From assembly GCA_009760855.2 (NCBI GenBank), contig WPIO01000065.1, positions 507,001 through 571,000 on the forward strand: a DNA stretch of 64,000 nucleotides. The letters run 5' to 3'. Within the stretch, counting starts at the first letter, position 1. Each line of letters starts with the position of its first letter. Below are positions 2,110 through 33,705 of this stretch, in pieces. A model generated the notes under the pieces. It did not search any database. It had not been told where the DNA came from and was given only the letters and a program-made list of their open reading frames with translations. The DNA comes from Cristatella mucedo. Its lineage: Eukaryota > Bryozoa > Phylactolaemata > Cristatellidae. The translations under genes and the position numbers were made by a program.

Positions 2110-4800
2110 GGTCTTGCAAAGAGCATGCTAAATAACATAATGTTAATAATAATAGCAATACATGTGTACAGCACCATCAGAGAACTCAACCTCTTTCTAG
2201 GCGCTTCATATAAGCTGTAATGCAAGCATGATCAAATGGTAAGTGGTAACATGCACAGCATCAATGGGATATGTTTAGAGGTAACATGCACAATGTCAGC
2301 CCCCATATGCACACATAGCACAAGTCAAAAGGATCTACAAATGCTTGCATTTTTAGCTTCTTTTGTCAAGTCGGGGATGTCGTTATGTCAGTCGGGACTG
2401 AGGTCTGGGCTTTGGCAGCATACGAACTAAAGACACGGTTTCCAAAAGATTTGGGAGTAGTTCTGAAGGTAGGCTCGAGCCAGAAAATGAATAGTCGACG
2501 GCAGATCCTTGAAGTCGATACGCTGCTTGATTGGGAGCCAGTGGAGGTCGGTAAAAAGGTGGCACTCCCGACAGATAAGCCTAGCTGTTGAATTTGGTAC
2601 CAACTGTAAGCACCTGATTGCGCAGGCCGGTAGACCAGCAAGCATTGAGTTGCATAAGTCGAGATGGAATGATATAATTGTATGGACCAATATAGATGTG
2701 GTAACCCTGTCTAAACAAGCCCGAATTGTAGCAATGTTATGTAGCTGAAAGTAGGCAGACTTGATTGTGGAGCTGATGTGGTCTTCTAACAGAAGGTCAG
2801 TTTGGAACATAACACCTAGATTTCGTGCAGATTCAACAGGAGATATGCTGGCAGAGCCGATTGTGGGCTTTCCAATTTCCTAATCACACTTGGTTTGCTC
2901 CCAACTAGTAAGTTGGCTTTATCATCATTTAATTTAAAAAAGTTTGCTGCCATCCATGTGCAAATGTCAGCAAGGAAGTTGAGAGAATTCGATGTGCAGG
3001 AGGGCTAGGATGGATCAAAGCAAATGCATAACTAAGATGGAGAGCGTAAACTTAGAAAAGAAGCTGACCAAGCAAAATGCCCTGAGCTACCTCAAACTTC
3101 AGTGTTTCCTCGGATGATCTTAGCCCATTCACATCAACACTCTAGAGGTTCCAATTGAGATAGGATCTGAACCGTTGAAGTGCAGTGCCAGTGATGCTCA
3201 GGCGAGATAAGAGGTACTGGAAAAAAACTTGGTGATCAGTGGTATCAAACTTTGCCGAAAGATCAAGCAGAGTGACTTTACACAAGTCTGCATACCTGGG
3301 AAGATCGTTATACACCCGAAGCAATGCTGACTCGGAGTAGTGATTAGCTCTAAAACCAGACTAGAACTTGATAGGTGTTAAGTTTCAATATAAGAGTTCA
3401 GCTGGTCTGCTGCAACTCGTTCTAGTGGCTTTGATAGAAGCAGCAGAAGGGTGGCTGGGTGGAAGGTGCTCAAGTTCTCTTGGCCTAGTGTTGCTTTCTT
3501 AATTCGAAGCCTGACAACAGCCTTTTGAAAGGTGCTGGGACATAACCTGAGGCAAAGGACATACTTATCAAGTTTATATGCATGGAGGCAGCAGATCTAT
3601 GCATTGCAAAAATAGGACAGTGGGAATAGGGTCTAGAGCAGTGGTTCTCAACCTGTGGGTCGCGACCCCTTTGGGGGTCGAACGAACCTTTCACAGGGGT
3701 CACTTAAGATAATCAGAAAACATGCATTTCCACATTTCGCACAGAATAATTTTATGGTTGGAGGTCGCCACAACATGAGGAACTGTATTAAAGGGTCGCA
3801 GCATTAGGAAAGTTGAGAAGCACTGGTCTAGATGGTAAGTATAGTCTTCTTAGACTGGGAGATGAACTCCAAAATGAGGTTACCAGTGGCAGTCTTGGAT
3901 GCACACATTAAGGTGCTTCACAGAATCGCGGGAGAGAAGTACTGTAAAGTTGCTATTAAGGGATAGGAGTCCAGAAGGGATGCTGCTACCTTACGGATGA
4001 GCTCTCTGGTCTTGCCAGTCTTGGTGAAAAAGAAGCCAGAGAAGCGATCAGCTAGATCGCCACAAGGATTAATAGGTAAGGAGCAAACTTGGAAGTGGTT
4101 AAGGAGATGGTTGATAGTAGAAATGAGTATATTTGGATTGCGCAACTGCGATTCAAAAATATTTTATATAAGCTAGACTTGACCTTTGCCAGGATCGATT
4201 AGTATAATCTACAGTAGTCCTGTGCCTGTCAACAGACAGTCAGTACTGCTCTGTTATATGCTTTCTCAAGCTGTTGCTTAGTAGACCTAGCTAGTTTAAT
4301 GTCTGTGGTAAACCATAAGCCGTCTAGGTGAGGGGAAACTGCTTAGCCAGAGGAGCAAACTCGTCAAGCATGTCAGCTAACGACGTGTTCTAACATTCTA
4401 CCAATGATGACAGGTCGGAAGAGGGATTGCGCTGCACGGGCGAACAAGATACTCTCGTGCGGACAGCATCGATGTTAAGGGTCTTGAGGTTTTGCGATTT
4501 ACAAGTGATTTGAATGCAAAGGAGGGCACACACTGTAGACTGAATGAGATTGGCATGTGGTCAGATGAGCAGAATTTGGTAATTATTGGGGATGATAGCA
4601 TATAGTTGCGGGAGAATATTTGATCGGTGTGTGACCGCTGTTGTGAGTACGGTTATGCGGATGAGCCACAAGAGAAAATGAGTCAGTCAGTGTACAAAAC
4701 TGATCTTTTGGTGCATATTTTCTTTCACTGAGTCACAGTACAAGTCGACCAGACCTGGCAGGGCAGATTAGTCAGCCCATATCATCTAAGACTCAACCCA
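2110..4800 (-). mobile_element. LINE-A relic, long copy interrupted by SPIN-like hAT
   Basis: This is a long minus-strand LINE-A copy. The 3' stem-loop sequence lies at about 2170-2215 and reverse transcriptase C-terminal fragments at 2427-2810. The 'LLDLSAKFDTTDHQVF' part of the fingers/palm is at 3142-3324. Linker fragments sit at 3918-4145 and 4398-4601, and the last recognisable part, toward the endonuclease, ends near 4700-4800. Many frameshifts and stops make it dead. A 187-bp hAT element is inserted at 3639-3825, so the hAT arrived after the LINE. The 5' boundary is approximate. Confidence 0.75.
3639..3825. mobile_element. SPIN-like non-autonomous hAT transposon
   Basis: This 187-bp element starts with CAGTGGTTCTCAACCTGTGG and ends with the inverse pattern (…TTGAGAAGCACTG). 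It is flanked by an 8-bp target duplication, gtctagag at 3631-3638 and gtctagat at 3826-3833, matching at 7 of 8 positions. An 8-bp duplication and CAGTGGTT-type ends are hallmarks of hAT elements. Beyond the ends, both subterminal regions look nearly identical, from memory, to the SPIN family: a left block rich in GTCGCGACCCC/GGGGGTCGAACGA, and a right block reading TTTTATGGTTGG…ATGAGGAACTG…AAAGGGTCG. SPIN is known from several tetrapods and some invertebrates through horizontal transfer. There is no transposase; it is a deletion derivative. It sits inside a dead LINE-A. Confidence 0.9.
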
Positions 4801-5036
4801 CACCTGTAGGTCTGACCCAATTAAGACTAAACACACTGTTGCTATTGCCCCCTCCCATAGGCAGCACTGTCCTCTGCAGCCAGAGCCGAGGTCTGCCGTG
4901 CATTTATCCTTAATAGAAATGTAGTTCACTCACTTGCGACTCGGAATCACCTATCTCCACTAAATACTTACCCACAGTATTAGAGAAAATGTTGCGATCG
5001 ATCAAAGATCTCCCAGGGTTTTAAGCCACCTGCAAA
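4801..5036. other. Unassigned spacer between LINE copies
   Basis: No coding signal or known repeat was recognised between the LINE-A 5' remnant and the 3' end of the next LINE-B copy. Confidence 0.35.
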
Positions 5037-5820
5037 TGTATCTCCGTCTGTAACTCCACAAAGTCATAAAGACCATGTGGGCGTTACGCAAGAGAGTTTT
5101 GTATAGCACACTCACAGCCTAAGCGGCTTTCGGTACACATTCGGTAGCCAACAGACTTCGTCTCACGCAACAAACAGAAAGTGGGAAGCATAGCAGAGTC
5201 AGGAGAGCAGTTGAGGTAGCGAGTAGCATAGAAGTAGCAGCTCAGGACCGCTGAAAAAGATGTGCCATAGTCGGCAGTTGAAGAGTAGTTGTCGTTGCAT
5301 AAGAATTGTGGAAGCGAGTTCCACAGTCTAGGACCTGCAGAGCTAAAGCTTCTGTCGCCTACTGTCTTTAAGCGGAGGAATGAATGGGACAGCTAATTTA
5401 TTGTCCACACAGGACCTCAGGGCACGAACAGACTGAAACTGATGCAGCAGTTCAGCTAGGTACGAAGGAGCCAAGCCGTGGTGGGCCTTGTGGGTCAGCG
5501 TAAGAACTTTGCTCTGTATCCTTTGCTCAACCGGCAACCATCTTAGCTCTTTCAGCAAAGGTGACACGTGCTCAAACTGCTGGGACTTGAAGACCAGCCT
5601 TGCAGCCATATTCATAGTCCGCTGTAGTGGCAAAATAGCTTTCTTTAGCAGCCCAGCCAAAAGGGAATTACAATCATCAAGCCGAGACAGAACTAGAGAG
5701 CTAGTTAATTTTTTTTACAAGCCACTGTGGGAGACAGCTCCTAATCTTGGATAGGGATCGGATGTGATGGCTAGCTGTAGAGGCAGTCTTCTGAATGAAG
5801 CTTTTGATATTGAGCCAGAA
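5037..5820 (-). mobile_element. LINE-B 3' fragment (reverse transcriptase C-terminus)
   Basis: This 5'-truncated minus-strand LINE-B copy keeps its family 3' end (TGTATCTCCGTCTGTAACTCC on the plus strand, at 5037). It retains a 105-codon frame (5343-5660) that closely matches the C-terminal region of the best LINE-B copy at 28010-28900, including the 'LQRTMNMAARLVFKSQ' and '[16 protein letters not shown]' segments. Homology stops near 5820 within the sequence coding for the C-terminal half of the enzyme. It is a typical product of incomplete reverse transcription. Confidence 0.8.
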
Positions 5821-19300: not shown

Positions 19301-22300
19301 CAAGTTTTGAAGTGCCACTTGCAAAACCCGGACGTTTGGTATGTATTATGATCAGTAAACGTCTAGCCGACATCCTATAACTTGTTGTAAAGCCCGACTT
19401 CCTTGTGCCTAAGCAAGCTAAGTTATACACAGTCACTGCATCCATTCAGATAGAGTAAATATGCATGGACTGGAGGTCTTTGCTGATTTTTTCTGCTCAC
19501 GATTATATAGATGTGCAATTTATCTCTGTCTGTAACTCCACAAAGCCAGTCCGTAATTCAACAAAGCCACACAGACTGAGTCAGTGTTATCAAAGAGAGT
19601 TTTCTATAGCGCATTCAAAGCCTATATTGCTTTCGGTACGCATGCGGTAGCCAACAGACTTTATCTCACGAAACGAAGAGAAAGTGAGAAAGCAGCATAT
19701 ATGAGTTAAGAGGCCAGCCAGGGAAGGGAGTAGCACGAAGGTACTAACAATAATAATGATGCATTTGCATAGCGTCCTAGGATAACTAAGTCTCTTTCTA
19801 GACACTTTACGTATGCTGTAAAGGAAGCATGAGACAATGATTAGTGGTAGTATGCACAATTTTAACAGGCATAACATAGTTAGAGATGACATGTGCAGCG
19901 TCAACATATAAATATGATTAGTGCTAGTATGCACAGTGTCAGCATGCATAAGCACACAAAGGTCGAATCACAAGGACTAAATTCTTTGATTATGTAGATG
20001 CGTTTTTTTCTTTTTAAATGTCAAGTCAGGCGATGTAGTGACGGTATTTGGGAGTGAGTTCTAGGCTTTGGGAGCATGTGAACTAAAGGCACTGTCCCTT
20101 AATGATTTGAGGTTCTTCTGATGTATAGCTAAACTATTTGAGTCAGAAAAGCAGGTTACGATTCCTAGGCTTAGGGGAGAGTAGTTCTGATAGGAGGTTG
20201 GAGCTAATGAATAAAAGAACTAAAAGTAAGTGACAAAACCCTGAATTTGTTGCACTGCTTGATTGGGAGCCAGTTCAGGTTGACGAGACGTGGTGTAATG
20301 TAACAGCTACGACGCTCACGACAGACAAGCCTAGCTGCAGAGTTTTGCACCAGCTGTAATCGCCTCGCCCTTAGGCCTGAAGACTTTTCGAGTAATGAGT
20401 TATAGATGTAGAGACAGGATTTTAAAAATGCGTGGACCAACTTGGTTGTTGAATCCCTGTCTAAGCAGGCCTGAAGTTTTGCAATGCCATATAGCCAAAA
20501 GTAGGCAGACTTGATGGTGGAGCTGATGTGGTCTTCTAATGAAGGGTCACTTGAAACAGGACACCCAGATTGCACGCGAATTCTACTAGAAATATGCTGG
20601 CCGAGCCCATTTTGAGGGATCGAGCCATTTTGAGGGATACGCTTTCAATTTCCGAGTCGCAAATGGTTTGCCCATAACTAGTATGTTGATTTTATCGCCA
20701 TTCAATTTGAGAAAGCTTGCTGCAATCCATGTGCAGATGTCAGCAATACATGCAGCAAGTGAGTTAAGAGAATTGAACGTACTGAAGGGCTCGAAGGGAT
20801 CAAAACAGAAGTACAAGCGAGTGTCATCTTCATAGAAATGAAAGCCTAGATTTTGCTTGGCGATCACTAAGGCAAGATGGAGAGTATAAACTTTGAAAAG
20901 AAGCGGACCAAGCACAGAGCCCTGAGGTACCTCGAACTTCAGTGTTTCATCGGATGATTTTTGTCCATTCACATCAACATTCTAGAGGTTCCCACTGAGA
21001 TAGAGTCTGAACCGTTGCAGTGTAGTACCAGTGATGCTCAGGCGAGATGAGAAGCTCTGGAAAAGGACTTGGTGATCAATGGTATCAAACAACGCTACCG
21101 AAAGATCAAGCAAAGCAAGCATAGAGACTTTACCCCAGGTCTGCATTCCCGAGAAGGTCGTTAAATACCCAAAGTAATGCTGACTCGGCGGAGTGATTAG
21201 CTGTAAAAACCAGACTGTAGCTTACCCACTAGGTGTGAAGTTCCAATATAATAGTTCAGCTGGTCGGCCACTGCTCGATCTTTGATAGGAATAATATAAG
21301 AAAGACTGGGTGGGAATTTCCTAAAGTTCTCCTGGTCTAGTGTTGCTTTCTTAATTAATGGCTAAAAAACAGCCTTGTTGAAAGATGAAGGGATATGGAC
21401 TGAGGCTATGGGAATATTTATTGTGTTAGTTATACATGGCAGCAGCAGATTTATGCATCTAAAAGTAGGATGGTGAGAAATTAATCTGGAGGATTAGTAG
21501 TCTTCTTTGACTGGGAGGTGAATTTCAGGATGAGGTCACTCGTAGCTCCTTTTAATATAGACACTGAGGTGCTGCACGGAATGTGGGGGGATTCCTGTAG
21601 GGTTGTTATTGAGGGACATGAGTTCAGATGGGATGCTGCTACCTTAGGGACAGACCCTTTGACCTTGTCTTTCTTGCTGAAAAAGAAGCTAGAGAAGGGA
21701 TCAGCGAGATCGCCAAAAGGAGCACTAGGTAAGGAGACAATCTGGGAGCGGTTACGAAGATTGTGGATGGTACACATCAGCATTTCTTTTATTGTGCACC
21801 TGTGACTCAATAATGTTATTAAAGAAGCGAAACTTGGCCATTCCCAGGATCAATCGGTACGATCTACAGTATCAGATCCTAGTATGCCTGACGATGGACA
21901 GCCAGTCCTGATCTTTTAAATGTTTTCTCAAGCTTTCCCTGAGTAGAGCTAGCTAGTTAACCATAGGCCGTCTGGGCGAGGGCGCTCATTCCGCTTAGTC
22001 AGATAGGCCAACTTATAAAGCATGTCAGCAAGTGAAGTGGGAGCTCAGGATGGCTTGAGATGACGTGCCACAAGTGGAGGTTATATGTCTTTGTGTATGA
22101 ATTGTGGAAATGAGTTCCACAGTCGAGGATCTGCCAAGCAAAAGCGTCAGCCGCCAACAGTCAATCAAACGGCTAATTTATTGTCTGTAGAAGTCCTGAG
22201 GGCGCGAGGAGGCTGAAACTGGTGCAGCAGTTCAGCTAGGGATGGAGTCAAGCCGAGGCGAACCTTTTTGGTCAGCGTAAGAACTTTATTCTGTATTGAT

Positions 22301-27960: not shown

Positions 27961-30640
27961 CATGTATCTCCGTCAGTAACTCCACAAAGTCATAAAGACC
28001 ATGTGGGTGTTACGCAAGAGAGTTTTGTATAGCACACTCACAGCCTAAGCGGCTTTCGGTACGCATTCGGTAGCCAACAGACTTCGTCTCACGCAACAAA
28101 CAGAAAGTGGGAAGCATAGCAGAGTCAGGAGAGCAGTTGAGGTAGCGAGTAGCATAGAAGTAGCAGTTCAGGACCGCTGAAAAAGATGTGCCATAGTCGG
28201 CAGTTGGAGAGTAGATGTTGTTGCGTAAGAATTGTGGAAGCGAGTTCCACAGTCTAGGACCTGCAGAGCTAAAGCTTCTGTCGCCAACTGTCTTTAAGCG
28301 GAGGAATTGGACAGCTAATTTATTGTCCACACCGGACCTCAGGGCGCGAACAGGTTGAAACTGATGCAGCAGTTCAGCTAGGTACGAAGGAGCCAAGCCG
28401 TGGCGGGCCTTGTGGGTCAGCGTAAGAACTTTGCTCTGTATCCGTTGCTCAACCGGCAACCATCCTAGCTCTTCCAGCAAAGGTGACACGTGCTCAAACC
28501 GCTGGGACTTGAAGACCAGCCTGGCAGCCATATTCATAGTCCGCTGTAGTGGCAAAATAGCTTTCTTTGGCAACCCAGCCAAAAGGGAATTACAATAATC
28601 AAGCCGAGACAGAACTAAAGAGCTAGTTAAATTTTTTACAAGCCACTGTGGGAGACAGCTCCTAATCTTGGATAGGGATCGGATGTGATGGCTAGCTGTA
28701 GAGGCAGTCTTCTGAATGAAGCTTTTGAAATTGAGGCAGCTGTCGAACACGACACCTAGATTACGAGCACGTGGTGAAGGTCGCGAAATAGCATCACCTA
28801 TTAGAACAGCAAAGCCTTTTAATCCAGCCACACGCTTAGGGTGTCCTATGAGCAGCAGTTCGGTTTTATCGTCATTTAATTTCAGGAAGTTTTCAGACAT
28901 TCAGGATCGAATATCGGCAAGGCAAGCATTCAGTTTCTCAGTTGCTGCAGCAGATTCCGACGGTTTAAATGATAAATACAACTGAGTATCGTCAGCATAG
29001 AAGTGATATCCTATTCCATGGGCCTTAATCACTTTTCCCTGAGGTTGCGTATAAATGGAGAACAGCATGGGACAAAGTACAGACCCTTGAGGGACTCCAC
29101 AGGTGACCCTTCTCATGTCTGAGACCTGACCCCCACACGACACGGATTGAACACGATCAGACAAGTATGATTTAAACCGCGCCAGTGCTTCGTCTGCCAG
29201 ACCGATCGTTGTTCTCAATCGTTCAAGAAGAACTTCGTGATCAATAGTGTCGAAGGCAGCAGACAGATCTAGCAGAGCTAGGGCAGTGACATTCCCGTCG
29301 TCGTTGCCACGTAGAATGTCATTGTTAACACGGAGGAGAGCAGTTTCAGTAGAGTGCTGCCTCTTGAACCCTGATTGAAATGTGTCTGACATTCCATTAT
29401 TTTCAATATGTTCAACTAGCTGCTTAGCAACAATTTTTTCAAGAATCTTTGATAAGAACGGAAGAACGGAAACTGGACGATAGTTTGCTAGGACCTCTGT
29501 GTCTGATCCGGCTTTTTAGAGTAGGTCTAACGATTGCCGATTTGAAGGACTTGGGGACGACCCCTTTTCTGCAAGTGAAGACCACAGATATGAAGGTATA
29601 GGGTCTTCACGAAACGAGCTCTTTTTGCTAGACCTTTTTAAGGAAGCCACATCACAGGCAGAAACATCGGAGAACCTTTTAAGAAAGGTCACAGGTTGAG
29701 GAACGGCGATTGCTTTGGTCGGAGGGGGCTTAATGGAGGCACGAATGTGCACAAATTTTTCAGTAAAGAAGGCTGAAAACTTTTCGGCTGAGCACTTAAT
29801 ATCTGGGGAGTCAGACCTCTCAGCATTGGCCAGTAAATGGTTTACTGTCTTATAAATCTGTTTAGTATCCGACTGGCAGGAATTCAGCTTTCTAATGAAA
29901 AAAGAAGCACTGGTTTTTAAGCTTTCGAGTGTAAACTCGAAGGAAGTCTTTAAAATTGACTAGGTCTGCCTCAGACCCCGATTTCTTGAAACGACGTTCA
30001 AGCCTGCGCTTAACTCGGAGCATCTTAAGGAGTTTTTTGTTAATTGAAAGGAATCTCGACGACTTTGAACACGGATAGAGCGAACGGGAGCATGCTTGTC
30101 AAGAGCACTCCTGAGTGTCATGTTCATCGCATCAGTGAGGGTATCGAGGCTGCCGGTCGAGTCTGGATGCAGATCAAGAAGGCCTGCATCACAAACAGAT
30201 TTAAAAAACTTGTCCATGTATATGCTTTGTAAGTTACGTCGTTTGGCAAATTCGACATTGCCCTGTACGTACGAGGGAGCAGGAGTAGTAAACGAGACCG
30301 AACAATGATCTGAGAGGGTCAGTGGGCACACCACGAAGTCAGTGGGGAGGACATCCTTAGTGATCACGAGATCTAGAATGTGGCCACCGACGTGGGTGCT
30401 ATGATTAACGTGTTGGGCCAAACCGAAATTCTCCAGACAGTCAAGAAATGAGCGGACCTGGCTGTTGCTAGTGTTGTCAACGTGAATATTGAGGTCTACA
30501 ATCAGTAGCGGCCTGTCACACACAAATATTTTAGCGAGGAACTCTGAAAACTCCTCTATAAACAAGTTTAGATAGCCAGAAGGAGGCCGGCATATCGCAA
30601 CGGTGAGAGGCATTATCTTTGATGAAGACCTGATACATTA
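27961..30640 (-). mobile_element. LINE-B, best-preserved copy (endonuclease C-terminus plus reverse transcriptase)
   Basis: A 2.7-kb minus-strand non-LTR retrotransposon. From 5' to 3': the C-terminal part of an APE-type endonuclease (29960-30613, with 'DLNIHVDN', 'HVGGHILDLVI' and 'LSDHCSV'), a linker (29516-29752), then reverse transcriptase (28901-29392, with 'LLDLSAAFDTIDH', 'GVPQGSV' and 'YHFYADDTQLYL') and its C-terminal region (28010-28900). The two reverse transcriptase frames are separated by a single in-frame stop at 28901-28903, where related sequence has Trp. At least one frameshift lies near 29510, in an A-run. The 3' end is the family terminus at 27961. The clade is inferred as L2/CR1-like. 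The N-terminal endonuclease is missing (5' truncation near 30640), so it cannot move by itself. Confidence 0.88.
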
Positions 30641-30884: not shown

Positions 30885-33705
30885 TAGTAATAATTCACTT
30901 GATAAAGCGCCCTCAGAGAACTTAATCTCTCTTTAGGCGCTTTACATTTGCTGCAAAGTGAAATGCAATTGAATGGTAAGTAAAATCATGCTTGAAAAAC
31001 AAACGAAATGAATAATATGGTTAGGGGTGACATGCACAGGGTCAGCACGCAAATGTGATTAGTGGCAGCATGCACAGTGCCAGCACGCATAAGCACATCA
31101 AGGACGAATCACAGAGACCCACTAAATGCTGTCCTAAATAGGTGTGTATTTAGGTTCCTTTTAAATGTGGTCGGGTCAGGGGATGTTCTGACGCAGGTCG
31201 GGAGGGAGTTCCAGGCTTTGGGAGCATATGAACTAAATGCACGGTCTCTAAAGGATTTGAGGTTTGTATGAGGTATTTCTAGACTGTTGGATTCCGAAAA
31301 GCCGGTGGTACGATGCTTGGCCTGATGGGGTAGTATATCTGACAGATAGGCTGGAGCCATAGAATGAAGGGACCTAAAAGTGAGCGACAAAACCTTGAAG
31401 TCAATCCGTTGCTTGACTGGTAGCCAGTGCAGGTCGGCGAGAAGTGGAGTAATGTGGCAACTGCGACGCTCACGACAGACAAGCCTAGCTGCAGAGTTTT
31501 GCACCAGCTGCAATCGCCTGATCGCACATGCTAGTAGGCCAGTAAGCAGTGAGTTGCAGAAGTCGAGACGAGATGTCACGAATGCATGGACCAACTTGGA
31601 CGTGGTATCTTTATCTAAACAAGCCCTAATTTTAGCAATGTTATGAAGCTGAAAATAGGCGAATTTGACTGTGGAGCTGATATGGTCGTCTAACGAGAGG
31701 TCGCTTTGGAATATGACACCTAGATTTCGAGCTGATTCAGCTAGAAATTTGCTGGCAGAGCCAATTTTGAGAGTCAGCCTTTCCAATTTGTGAATCACAC
31801 TGGGTTTTCCCATAACTAGTAAGTTAATTTTATCATCGTTAAGTTTTAGAAAATGTGCTGCCATCCATGTGCGGATGTCATCAATGGATGCAGCTAGTGA
31901 GTTTAGAGAATTTGAGGTGCTTGAAGGCTGGGAGGGATCAAAGCAAAGGTACAACTGAGTGTCATCCACATAGAAGTGAAAGCCTAGATTGTGCTTGGCA
32001 ATCACATCAGCAAGAGGCAGCGTATAAACCGTGAAAAGAACCGGACCTAGCACTGAGCCCTGAGGTACTCCATATTTCAGAGGTACTTCAGATGATCTTT
32101 GTCCATTCACGTCAATACTCTGGAGTCTCCCACTGAGATAGGACCTGAACCACTGCAGAGCAGTGCCAATGATGCCCAGGCGAGATGAGAGGCGCTCTAG
32201 AAGAACTTTGTGATCGATGGTATCAAAAGCTGCCGAAAGATCACGCAAAACAAGCAGAGACATTCTATCCATGTCTGCATTCCTAAGTAGGTCGTTGTAT
32301 ACCCGAAGCAATGCTGACTCTGTGGAGTGATTAGCTCTAAAGCCAGACTGGAACTTACTAGCAAGGTGTGAGGTTTCGATATACGAGTTCAGCTGGTCCG
32401 CCACGACCCGTTCCAGTGTCTTTTATAGGAATGGTAGAATTGAAACTGGGCGGTAGTTGCTCAAGTTCTCTTGGTCAAGTGTAGCTTTCTTGAGACGTGG
32501 CCTGACTACAGCTTTTTTGAAAGGTGCTGGGACATGACCTGAGGCTAATGACATATAAATTATGTTAGTTATGCATGGCTGCAGCAGATCAATGCAACGT
32601 TGGAGCAGGACAGTGGGAATAGGGTCCAGAGGACTTGTTGTCTTCTTTGATTGAGATACAAACTTTAGGACTAGATCACTAGTGACCTGCTTAAATGCAG
32701 ACATTGAGGTGCAGCCAGGAACCGAGGAACAGCATTCTAGTGGGGAGGTTGTCATCGCAGGGATGGATTCCCTGATCTTGTCTATCTTCTGCACAAAGAA
32801 TCGAGAGAAGCGATCGGCTAGATCATCATTAGGATCATCAGGTAAGGAGCTAATCTAGGAACGGTTGAGGAGATGGTTTATTGTCGACATCAGTATTTTT
32901 GGATTGTGCATCTGTGATTCAACAATGTTTTTATAAAAAACTAGACTTAGCCTTTGCTAGGATCGATTGGTACGACCTAAAGTAGTCTTCATATGCCTGT
33001 CGATGGACAGTTAGTCCGGATCTTGTGTATGCTTTTTCAAGCTTTCGTTTAGTAGACTTGGCTAGTTTAATGTCTGCGGTAAACCATAGGCCGTCTGGGC
33101 GGGGGCGCACAGTGCGCTTTTGTCAGAGGGGCAAAATCGTCTAGCGTGTCAGCTAGTGTCGTGTTGAAGCTATCTACCAATTATGACAGATCGGAGGGAG
33201 GATTGAGCAGCAGAGATGAAGCAGATATTCTCGCACGGACAGCATCGATGTCAAGGGTCTTGAGGTTTCGCGATTTACAGGTTTTTTTAGAGGAGGATGT
33301 GGGCACACACTGTAGATTGAATGAGATCTGCAAGTGGTCAGATAAGCATGATTTGGTAATAATTGGTGATGACAAAGTGCAGTTATATGAGAAAATCTGG
33401 TCGAGTGTGTGACCCTCGATGTGGGTAGGGCCATGCACATGAGCCACAAGAGACAATGACTCAGTCAATGCACGAAATTCGGTGCTGAAAGCGTCAGATA
33501 AGTTATCAAAGTGAACGTTGAAATCACTCATTACGAGGAAGGATTGATTTCTTGCACACAGAATCGAAATGAGATCGGAGAAATCCGAGATAAAGGAGGA
33601 TTTGGTACCTGGTGGATAGAGGCGTAACGGTGCAAGTAATAAGCTAATTCTAGCGAAAGAGCATTGGGCCGTCGAATAGGTGACCGCAAACTGACATTGC
33701 AATTG
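30880..33705 (-). mobile_element. LINE-A, best-preserved copy
   Basis: A 2.8-kb minus-strand L2/CR1-like LINE. It includes the endonuclease C-terminus (33181-33700, 'VMSDFNVHFD' and 'THIEGHTLDQIF'), a linker (32423-32794) and a long reverse transcriptase frame (31109-32404, 431 codons). That frame carries 'FRANHSTESALLRVYNDL', 'SAAFDTIDHKVLLERL', '[13 protein letters not shown]', 'FHFYVDDTQLYL' and the C-terminal 'WNSLP' and 'FKRNLNTHLF' motifs. The 3' UTR and stem-loop tail lie at 30885-31108, ending in ATAATAAT. It is 5'-truncated at a CA microsatellite (33716). Stops and frameshifts between pieces make it inactive. It serves here as the reference for the other LINE-A copies. Confidence 0.9.

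What the first reader, a model, noticed from the sequence alone, without database searches (positions are those of the whole stretch)
3631..3833. SPIN-like hAT element with intact ends and target duplication
The 187-bp element has hAT ends, an 8-bp target duplication (7/8 match) and subterminal sequence that looks, from memory, almost identical to the SPIN family known for repeated horizontal transfer between tetrapods and some invertebrates. It sits in a much more decayed LINE-A, so it arrived later. Such close similarity in an animal with otherwise diverged repeats points to horizontal acquisition.
Basis: partly seen in the sequence, partly recalled or inferred. Interest (0 to 1): 0.85.

Follow-up and report, generated by a model that had tools for sequence, protein, structure and literature searches.

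The report
SPIN transposon fossil in a lophotrochozoan
A short, dead jumping-gene copy in an invertebrate genome belongs to a family that, as recalled from memory, is almost letter for letter the same as one in rodents, so it most likely arrived by horizontal transfer between animals; similar cases are already known.

Summary
Window 3639-3825 is a 187-bp non-autonomous hAT element with an 8-bp target duplication (7 of 8) and a clean empty site in two LINE paralogs. Its 5' end occurs at 852 places in its own 572-Mb genome, whose mitochondrial contig points to a lophotrochozoan. Copies form a star-like burst about 6% diverged (non-CpG); target duplications independently give 6.1% per copy.

SPIN identity: no SPIN record could be fetched. 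A 32-mer reaching into it later hit 57 places (reversed control 0) and exposed a longer subfamily carrying it (58 of 59 aligned bases identical, one 3-nt gap). A 1,123-bp relic with both ends, a perfect duplication and a broken transposase C-terminus exists; no intact SPIN transposase was found.

The SPIN label is supported; horizontal transfer is likely but not directly tested. SPIN-like elements in a snail are already in print: a new member of a known kind.

The parts
3631..3638 (.). left copy of the 8-bp target duplication, GTCTAGAG
   Evidence: in 48 copies, T at position 4 in 89 of 96 and A at position 5 in 86 of 96 flanks
3639..3825 (+). 187-bp non-autonomous SPIN element; 14 differences from the family consensus (K2P 0.080, non-CpG 0.057)
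3639..3654 (+). 5' terminal inverted repeat (16 bp; 15 of 16 match the reverse complement of the 3' end in the consensus)
3810..3825 (+). 3' terminal inverted repeat
3826..3833 (.). right copy of the target duplication, GTCTAGAT (7 of 8 match)
2372..4699 (-). broken LINE copy (reverse transcriptase fragments at 2372-3410 on the minus strand) into which the element inserted; approximate limits
   Evidence: tblastn and blastn to paralogs within 31109-33477 and 19995-22029

Best explanation
The element is one dead copy of SPIN, a hAT DNA transposon, in its short non-autonomous (MITE) form. Shown: both ends, target duplication, empty site, hundreds of relatives in the same genome, a second longer subfamily, and broken transposase remnants, one of them between two SPIN ends. 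Inferred: an autonomous SPIN entered the germ line of an ancestor by horizontal transfer; its transposase recognised the shared ends of internally deleted copies and moved them by cut and paste into sites with a central TA, giving 8-bp duplications; the burst then stopped and the copies decayed by about 6%. At an assumed neutral rate of 1-3 x 10^-9 per site per year (recalled, not measured for this lineage) that is roughly 20-60 million years.
For: Ends, duplication and empty site. 852 places by the 5' end, control 0. Star-like family: pairwise/consensus distance 1.87, consensus divergence 0.058, against 0.061 from target duplications. The 187-bp consensus aligns to the recalled rodent SPIN_NA/URR1-like sequence at 179 of 186 positions; the first 85 bases are identical and the last 81 have one mismatch. 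Prediction met: the internal segment typed was later found in the genome, 57 pattern hits with control 0, and in the 313-bp long consensus at 58 of 59 aligned bases with one 3-nt gap, score 105 against a maximum of 27 in 500 shuffles and 25 in the whole window. Relic C5:384414-385536 has both SPIN ends, a perfect CACTAAAT duplication and a transposase-like C-terminal remnant. That remnant has four other matches in the genome; three of them lie about 160-210 bp upstream of SPIN 3' internal sequence. One of the three (L106) aligns to a 563-aa hAT frame of the same genome, 26% over 80 aa, E 5e-6 in a 901-base subject; that frame hits Dimer_Tnp_hAT just over its cut-off (22.7 against 21.4 bits).
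Against: The comparison SPIN sequence is from memory; no SPIN record could be fetched. It was typed after the 187-bp consensus had been seen, so only its internal segment is an independent test. The recalled rodent 5' junction is absent: 5 hits, all with 3 mismatches, which read as mutated 187-bp copies. The C5 remnant has no Pfam match, and a piece of the L106 relic has no useful PDB match. No close relative's genome was available to show patchy distribution. The 6% divergence is not unusually low for this genome.
Confidence: 0.87

Rival explanations
1. A different hAT family, old and vertically inherited in this lineage, that shares only its ends with SPIN.
For: hAT families can have similar ends: another family here has an end reading CAGGGGTGTCCAACC on one strand. 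The SPIN sequence used here is recalled.
Against: In the long subfamily the match covers about 84 bp at one end (one 1-nt gap) and 138 bp at the other, including an internal segment typed before it was seen in this genome. The copies are only about 6% diverged.
Confidence: 0.06
2. SPIN sequence reached the assembly as contamination from vertebrate DNA rather than by integration.
For: None seen here; contamination is a usual rival for claims of horizontal transfer.
Against: The window copy sits inside a host LINE, with a duplicated target and an empty site in two paralogs. The first 100 of 852 places lie on many contigs, several of them millions of bases long. The 187-bp subfamily differs internally from the recalled rodent form.
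Confidence: 0.01
3. SPIN has been in lophotrochozoans since before the split from vertebrates, or entered them first and moved from them to tetrapods.
For: A SPIN-like hAT (about 1,000 copies) is reported in the snail Biomphalaria glabrata (PMC5440852, passage). Direction cannot be read from one genome.
Against: Non-coding DNA should not stay near-identical over more than 500 million years of vertical descent (general knowledge). A later transfer out of this lineage is not excluded.
Confidence: 0.06

Closest known systems
SPIN (Space Invaders) hAT transposons of tetrapods, and SPIN_NA / rodent URR1-like MITEs (comparison sequence recalled)
   Same: Ends, subterminal sequence and about 60 nt of internal 3' sequence nearly identical; 8-bp duplications; short non-autonomous copies.
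   Different: The internal deletion junctions (187-bp and about 313-bp forms) differ from the recalled rodent form; the host is an invertebrate.
SPIN-like hAT of Biomphalaria glabrata (PMC5440852, passage)
   Same: Lophotrochozoan host; about 1,000 copies; no intact transposases detected in that assembly either.
   Different: No sequence in the passage seen, so identity could not be compared; the host species here is not identified.
SPIN of Rhodnius prolixus (PMC11614815, passages)
   Same: Invertebrate genome with SPIN_NA elements attributed to transfer from vertebrates.
   Different: Insect host; its genome-wide copy number and sequence were not in the passages seen.
Other hAT families of this genome: 640-aa BED/hAT family (L074) and 563-aa hAT family (L083, L084)
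   Same: hAT dimerisation domain; cut-and-paste type by family.
   Different: No match to the SPIN consensus beyond short words in the stretches read; long open frames remain.

Membership tests
hAT superfamily DNA transposon | 8-bp target duplication and terminal inverted repeats beginning CAG | tested here: met
   38 of 48 copies with at least 6 of 8 matching, control mean 7.7, maximum 17; 16-bp inverted repeats, 15 of 16
hAT superfamily DNA transposon | partner encoding a hAT transposase | tested here: inconclusive
   A broken relic beside SPIN sequence aligns to a hAT frame; the C5 remnant has no Pfam hit; no intact copy among 5 matches from 10 candidates
SPIN | near-identity to SPIN over ends and subterminal sequence | tested here: met
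   179 of 186 aligned bases, but against a sequence recalled from memory; no library record available
SPIN | internal sequence shared, not ends alone | tested here: met
   57 hits to a recalled 32-mer, control 0; 58 of 59 aligned bases in the long consensus; a second recalled piece, the rodent 5' junction, not found
SPIN | Buster-type target duplication, nnnTAnnn (recalled) | tested here: met
   T at position 4 in 89 of 96, A at position 5 in 86 of 96; CACTAAAT on the 1.1-kb relic
SPIN | transposase groups with Buster-type transposases in a tree | not tested
   Only short broken pieces read; no Buster reference sequence fetched
SPIN | patchy host distribution through horizontal transfer | not testable with these tools
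   No related animal genomes held

The most novel reading that the evidence does not exclude
A separate SPIN invasion of a lophotrochozoan lineage not listed in the passages seen here, in which an autonomous element nearly identical to that of rodents arrived, produced two independent MITE subfamilies and died, making this lineage part of the same transfer wave as tetrapods.
Probability: 0.5. Interest if true: 0.55.

Novelty: new member of a known kind. Interest (0 to 1): 0.42.

Why it matters
SPIN is a well-known case of transposon transfer between distant animals. A lophotrochozoan genome with two SPIN subfamilies, coding relics and an internal molecular clock (target duplications) lets the time, number and route of invasions be tested in a group where the passages seen here report only a snail.

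Tried and rejected
Vertebrate or viral SPIN records: no match in plasmids, viral contigs or prokaryote genomes; the 7 phage matches look like chance (34-35 bases, E 0.6). Rfam gave two matches far below their gathering scores. Sequence strings in the paper library: 0 papers. Under the DOIs I recalled for Gilbert 2010, Pace 2008, Gilbert 2012, Li 2013 and Arensburger 2011 no paper is held; they are used from memory. The hAT hits were considered as SPIN's partner: nine loci were read (L074-L080, L083, L084), and none matches the SPIN consensus beyond short words; where ends were scanned (L075-L080, L083, L084) only end-like stretches with 3-4 mismatches appeared, and L074 was compared by blastn only. 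The stretches are 1.8-4.3 kb long, so ends outside them would be missed. L081 and L082 were not examined. The 20 long-form loci were 20 of 57: all 16 one-mismatch places plus 4 chosen ones; 8 of the 20 made the long consensus. Copies L045, L069 and L069b were dropped before the means (51 of 54 kept), not before the medians. A LINE divergence search across the genome did not complete, nor a DNA search with the young hAT frame; neither was repeated. Host species not identified.

Full report
Observation. The element occupies 3639-3825 and is flanked by GTCTAGAG and GTCTAGAT. Its 16-bp ends are inverted repeats. Joining the flanks and aligning them to two uninterrupted LINE copies in the window shows a clean empty site with one target copy. 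The LINE copy itself carries stops and frameshifts in its reverse transcriptase.

Family. The own genome (572 Mb, 688 contigs) gives 852 places within 3 mismatches of the 31-bp 5' end and none for the reversed pattern; a DNA search had 2229 first-look candidates, of which 40 were scored. Of 22 copies fetched without the pattern, 16 pass that threshold. Those 22 are among the best matches to the window copy, so this is a biased sample; the true number is probably above a thousand (inference). Of the 30 loci fetched by the pattern, the window's own included, 29 align to the window element over 150 bp or more. The consensus of 54 distinct copies is 187 bp; the window copy differs at 14 positions.

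Age. Median K2P to the consensus is 0.068 for 54 copies and 0.078 for the 32 from the pattern sample. With three copies dropped, mean non-CpG divergence is 0.058, and mean pairwise distance is 1.87 times that, close to the 2 of a star. Target duplications, identical at birth, differ at 12.2% of sites by a mixture fit, or 6.1% per copy. The two clocks agree, so most of the divergence arose after insertion in this lineage. Years depend on an assumed rate.

Target choice. Of 48 copies, 38 have duplications of at least 6 of 8; T stands at position 4 in 89 of 96 flanks and A at position 5 in 86 of 96. This is the Buster-type pattern as I recall it; the paper is not held.

SPIN identity. The first 85 bases agree and the last 81 have one mismatch, but that comparison alone could be coloured by what I had seen. 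Searching a 32-mer whose first part lies in this segment found 57 places, 16 of them with one mismatch and none exact, control 0. Twenty of the 57 were fetched. Eight gave a 313-bp consensus that carries the whole segment: 58 of 59 aligned bases identical and one 3-nt gap, score 105 against 11 for the 187-bp consensus, 25 for the best place in the window and at most 27 in 500 shuffles. The median K2P of the 20 long-form loci to that consensus is 0.096; several align only in part, and L097 and L099 are near-duplicates. A second recalled piece, the rodent 5' junction, gave only 5 hits with 3 mismatches, which read as mutated short copies; different deletion derivatives would explain this.

Transposase. 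A 1,123-bp relic at C5:384414-385536 has both SPIN ends, a perfect CACTAAAT duplication and an 80-aa stop-free C-terminal piece. That piece has four other matches in the genome among 10 candidates. Three lie about 160-210 bp upstream of SPIN 3' internal sequence (coordinates). One relic (L106) aligns at two places to the 563-aa frame of L083, 26% over 80 aa and 29% over 78 aa, with stops inside both. That frame hits the hAT dimerisation domain just over its cut-off and DUF4371 under its cut-off. Pfam does not recognise the 80-aa piece, and a PDB search with a piece of L106 gave nothing useful. No intact SPIN transposase was seen.

Host. The mitochondrial contig C688 reads well with code 5; AGA and AGG sit at conserved serines (conservation recalled). 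Nine of ten frames sent to Pfam were recognised, nad6 was not; cob and nad4L were named by eye. The block nad1-nad6-cob-S2-nad4L-nad4-H-nad5, with candidate T and P tRNA genes on the other strand (from a list of 44 candidates), matches the order of these genes in the table for the nemertean Lineus viridis, which has a further tRNA after nad1 (PMC2728741, passages), and the reverse-strand block described for solenogasters, apart from T and P (PMC11488289, passages). This supports a lophotrochozoan, phylum undetermined.

Known ground. Passages seen: SPIN-like hAT with about 1,000 copies in Biomphalaria glabrata (PMC5440852), SPIN in Rhodnius (PMC11614815), 385 SPIN elements in the painted turtle (PMC4054807). 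A search for space invaders, transposon, horizontal transfer and mollusc together returned only the Biomphalaria paper. SPIN in the snail Lymnaea is recalled only.

Verdict. The element is a SPIN MITE with high probability. Horizontal transfer is likely, because non-coding DNA would not stay this similar to a mammalian element by descent, but that step depends on the recalled label and was not tested directly.

Noticed in passing
L074 (G000:C210:1959200-1962600): A hAT family with BED and hAT dimerisation domains and a 640-aa open frame; 55 of 138 domain matches in the genome share one identical score, which suggests very recent activity.
   Followed up: partly
L083 (G000:C645:1540700-1545000) and L084 (G000:C244:4523300-4527200): A hAT family with frames of 563 and 482 aa; the two loci are 94.5% identical over about 2.67 kb and L083 is 94.2% identical to L076 over 2.1 kb. 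One end reads CAGGGGTGTCCAACC on one strand; no SPIN ends seen.
   Followed up: partly
window 5036-5818 and 27962-28739: A repeat pair 95.9% identical over 783 bp, younger than the SPIN family.
   Followed up: no
G000:C688 (mitochondrial contig, 21,008 bases): Exact long direct and inverted duplications of about 1.8-2.1 kb, and both strands used for genes; duplicated region or assembly artefact.
   Followed up: no
L047 (G000:C88, about 5914989-5916146): Two SPIN copies in opposite orientation about 1.1 kb apart; about what chance would give for this copy number (rough estimate, no call).
   Followed up: no
L097 and L099 (contigs C468 and C653): Two 882-base stretches 99.7% identical that hold the same truncated long SPIN copy: a recent duplication or redundant contig.
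   Followed up: no
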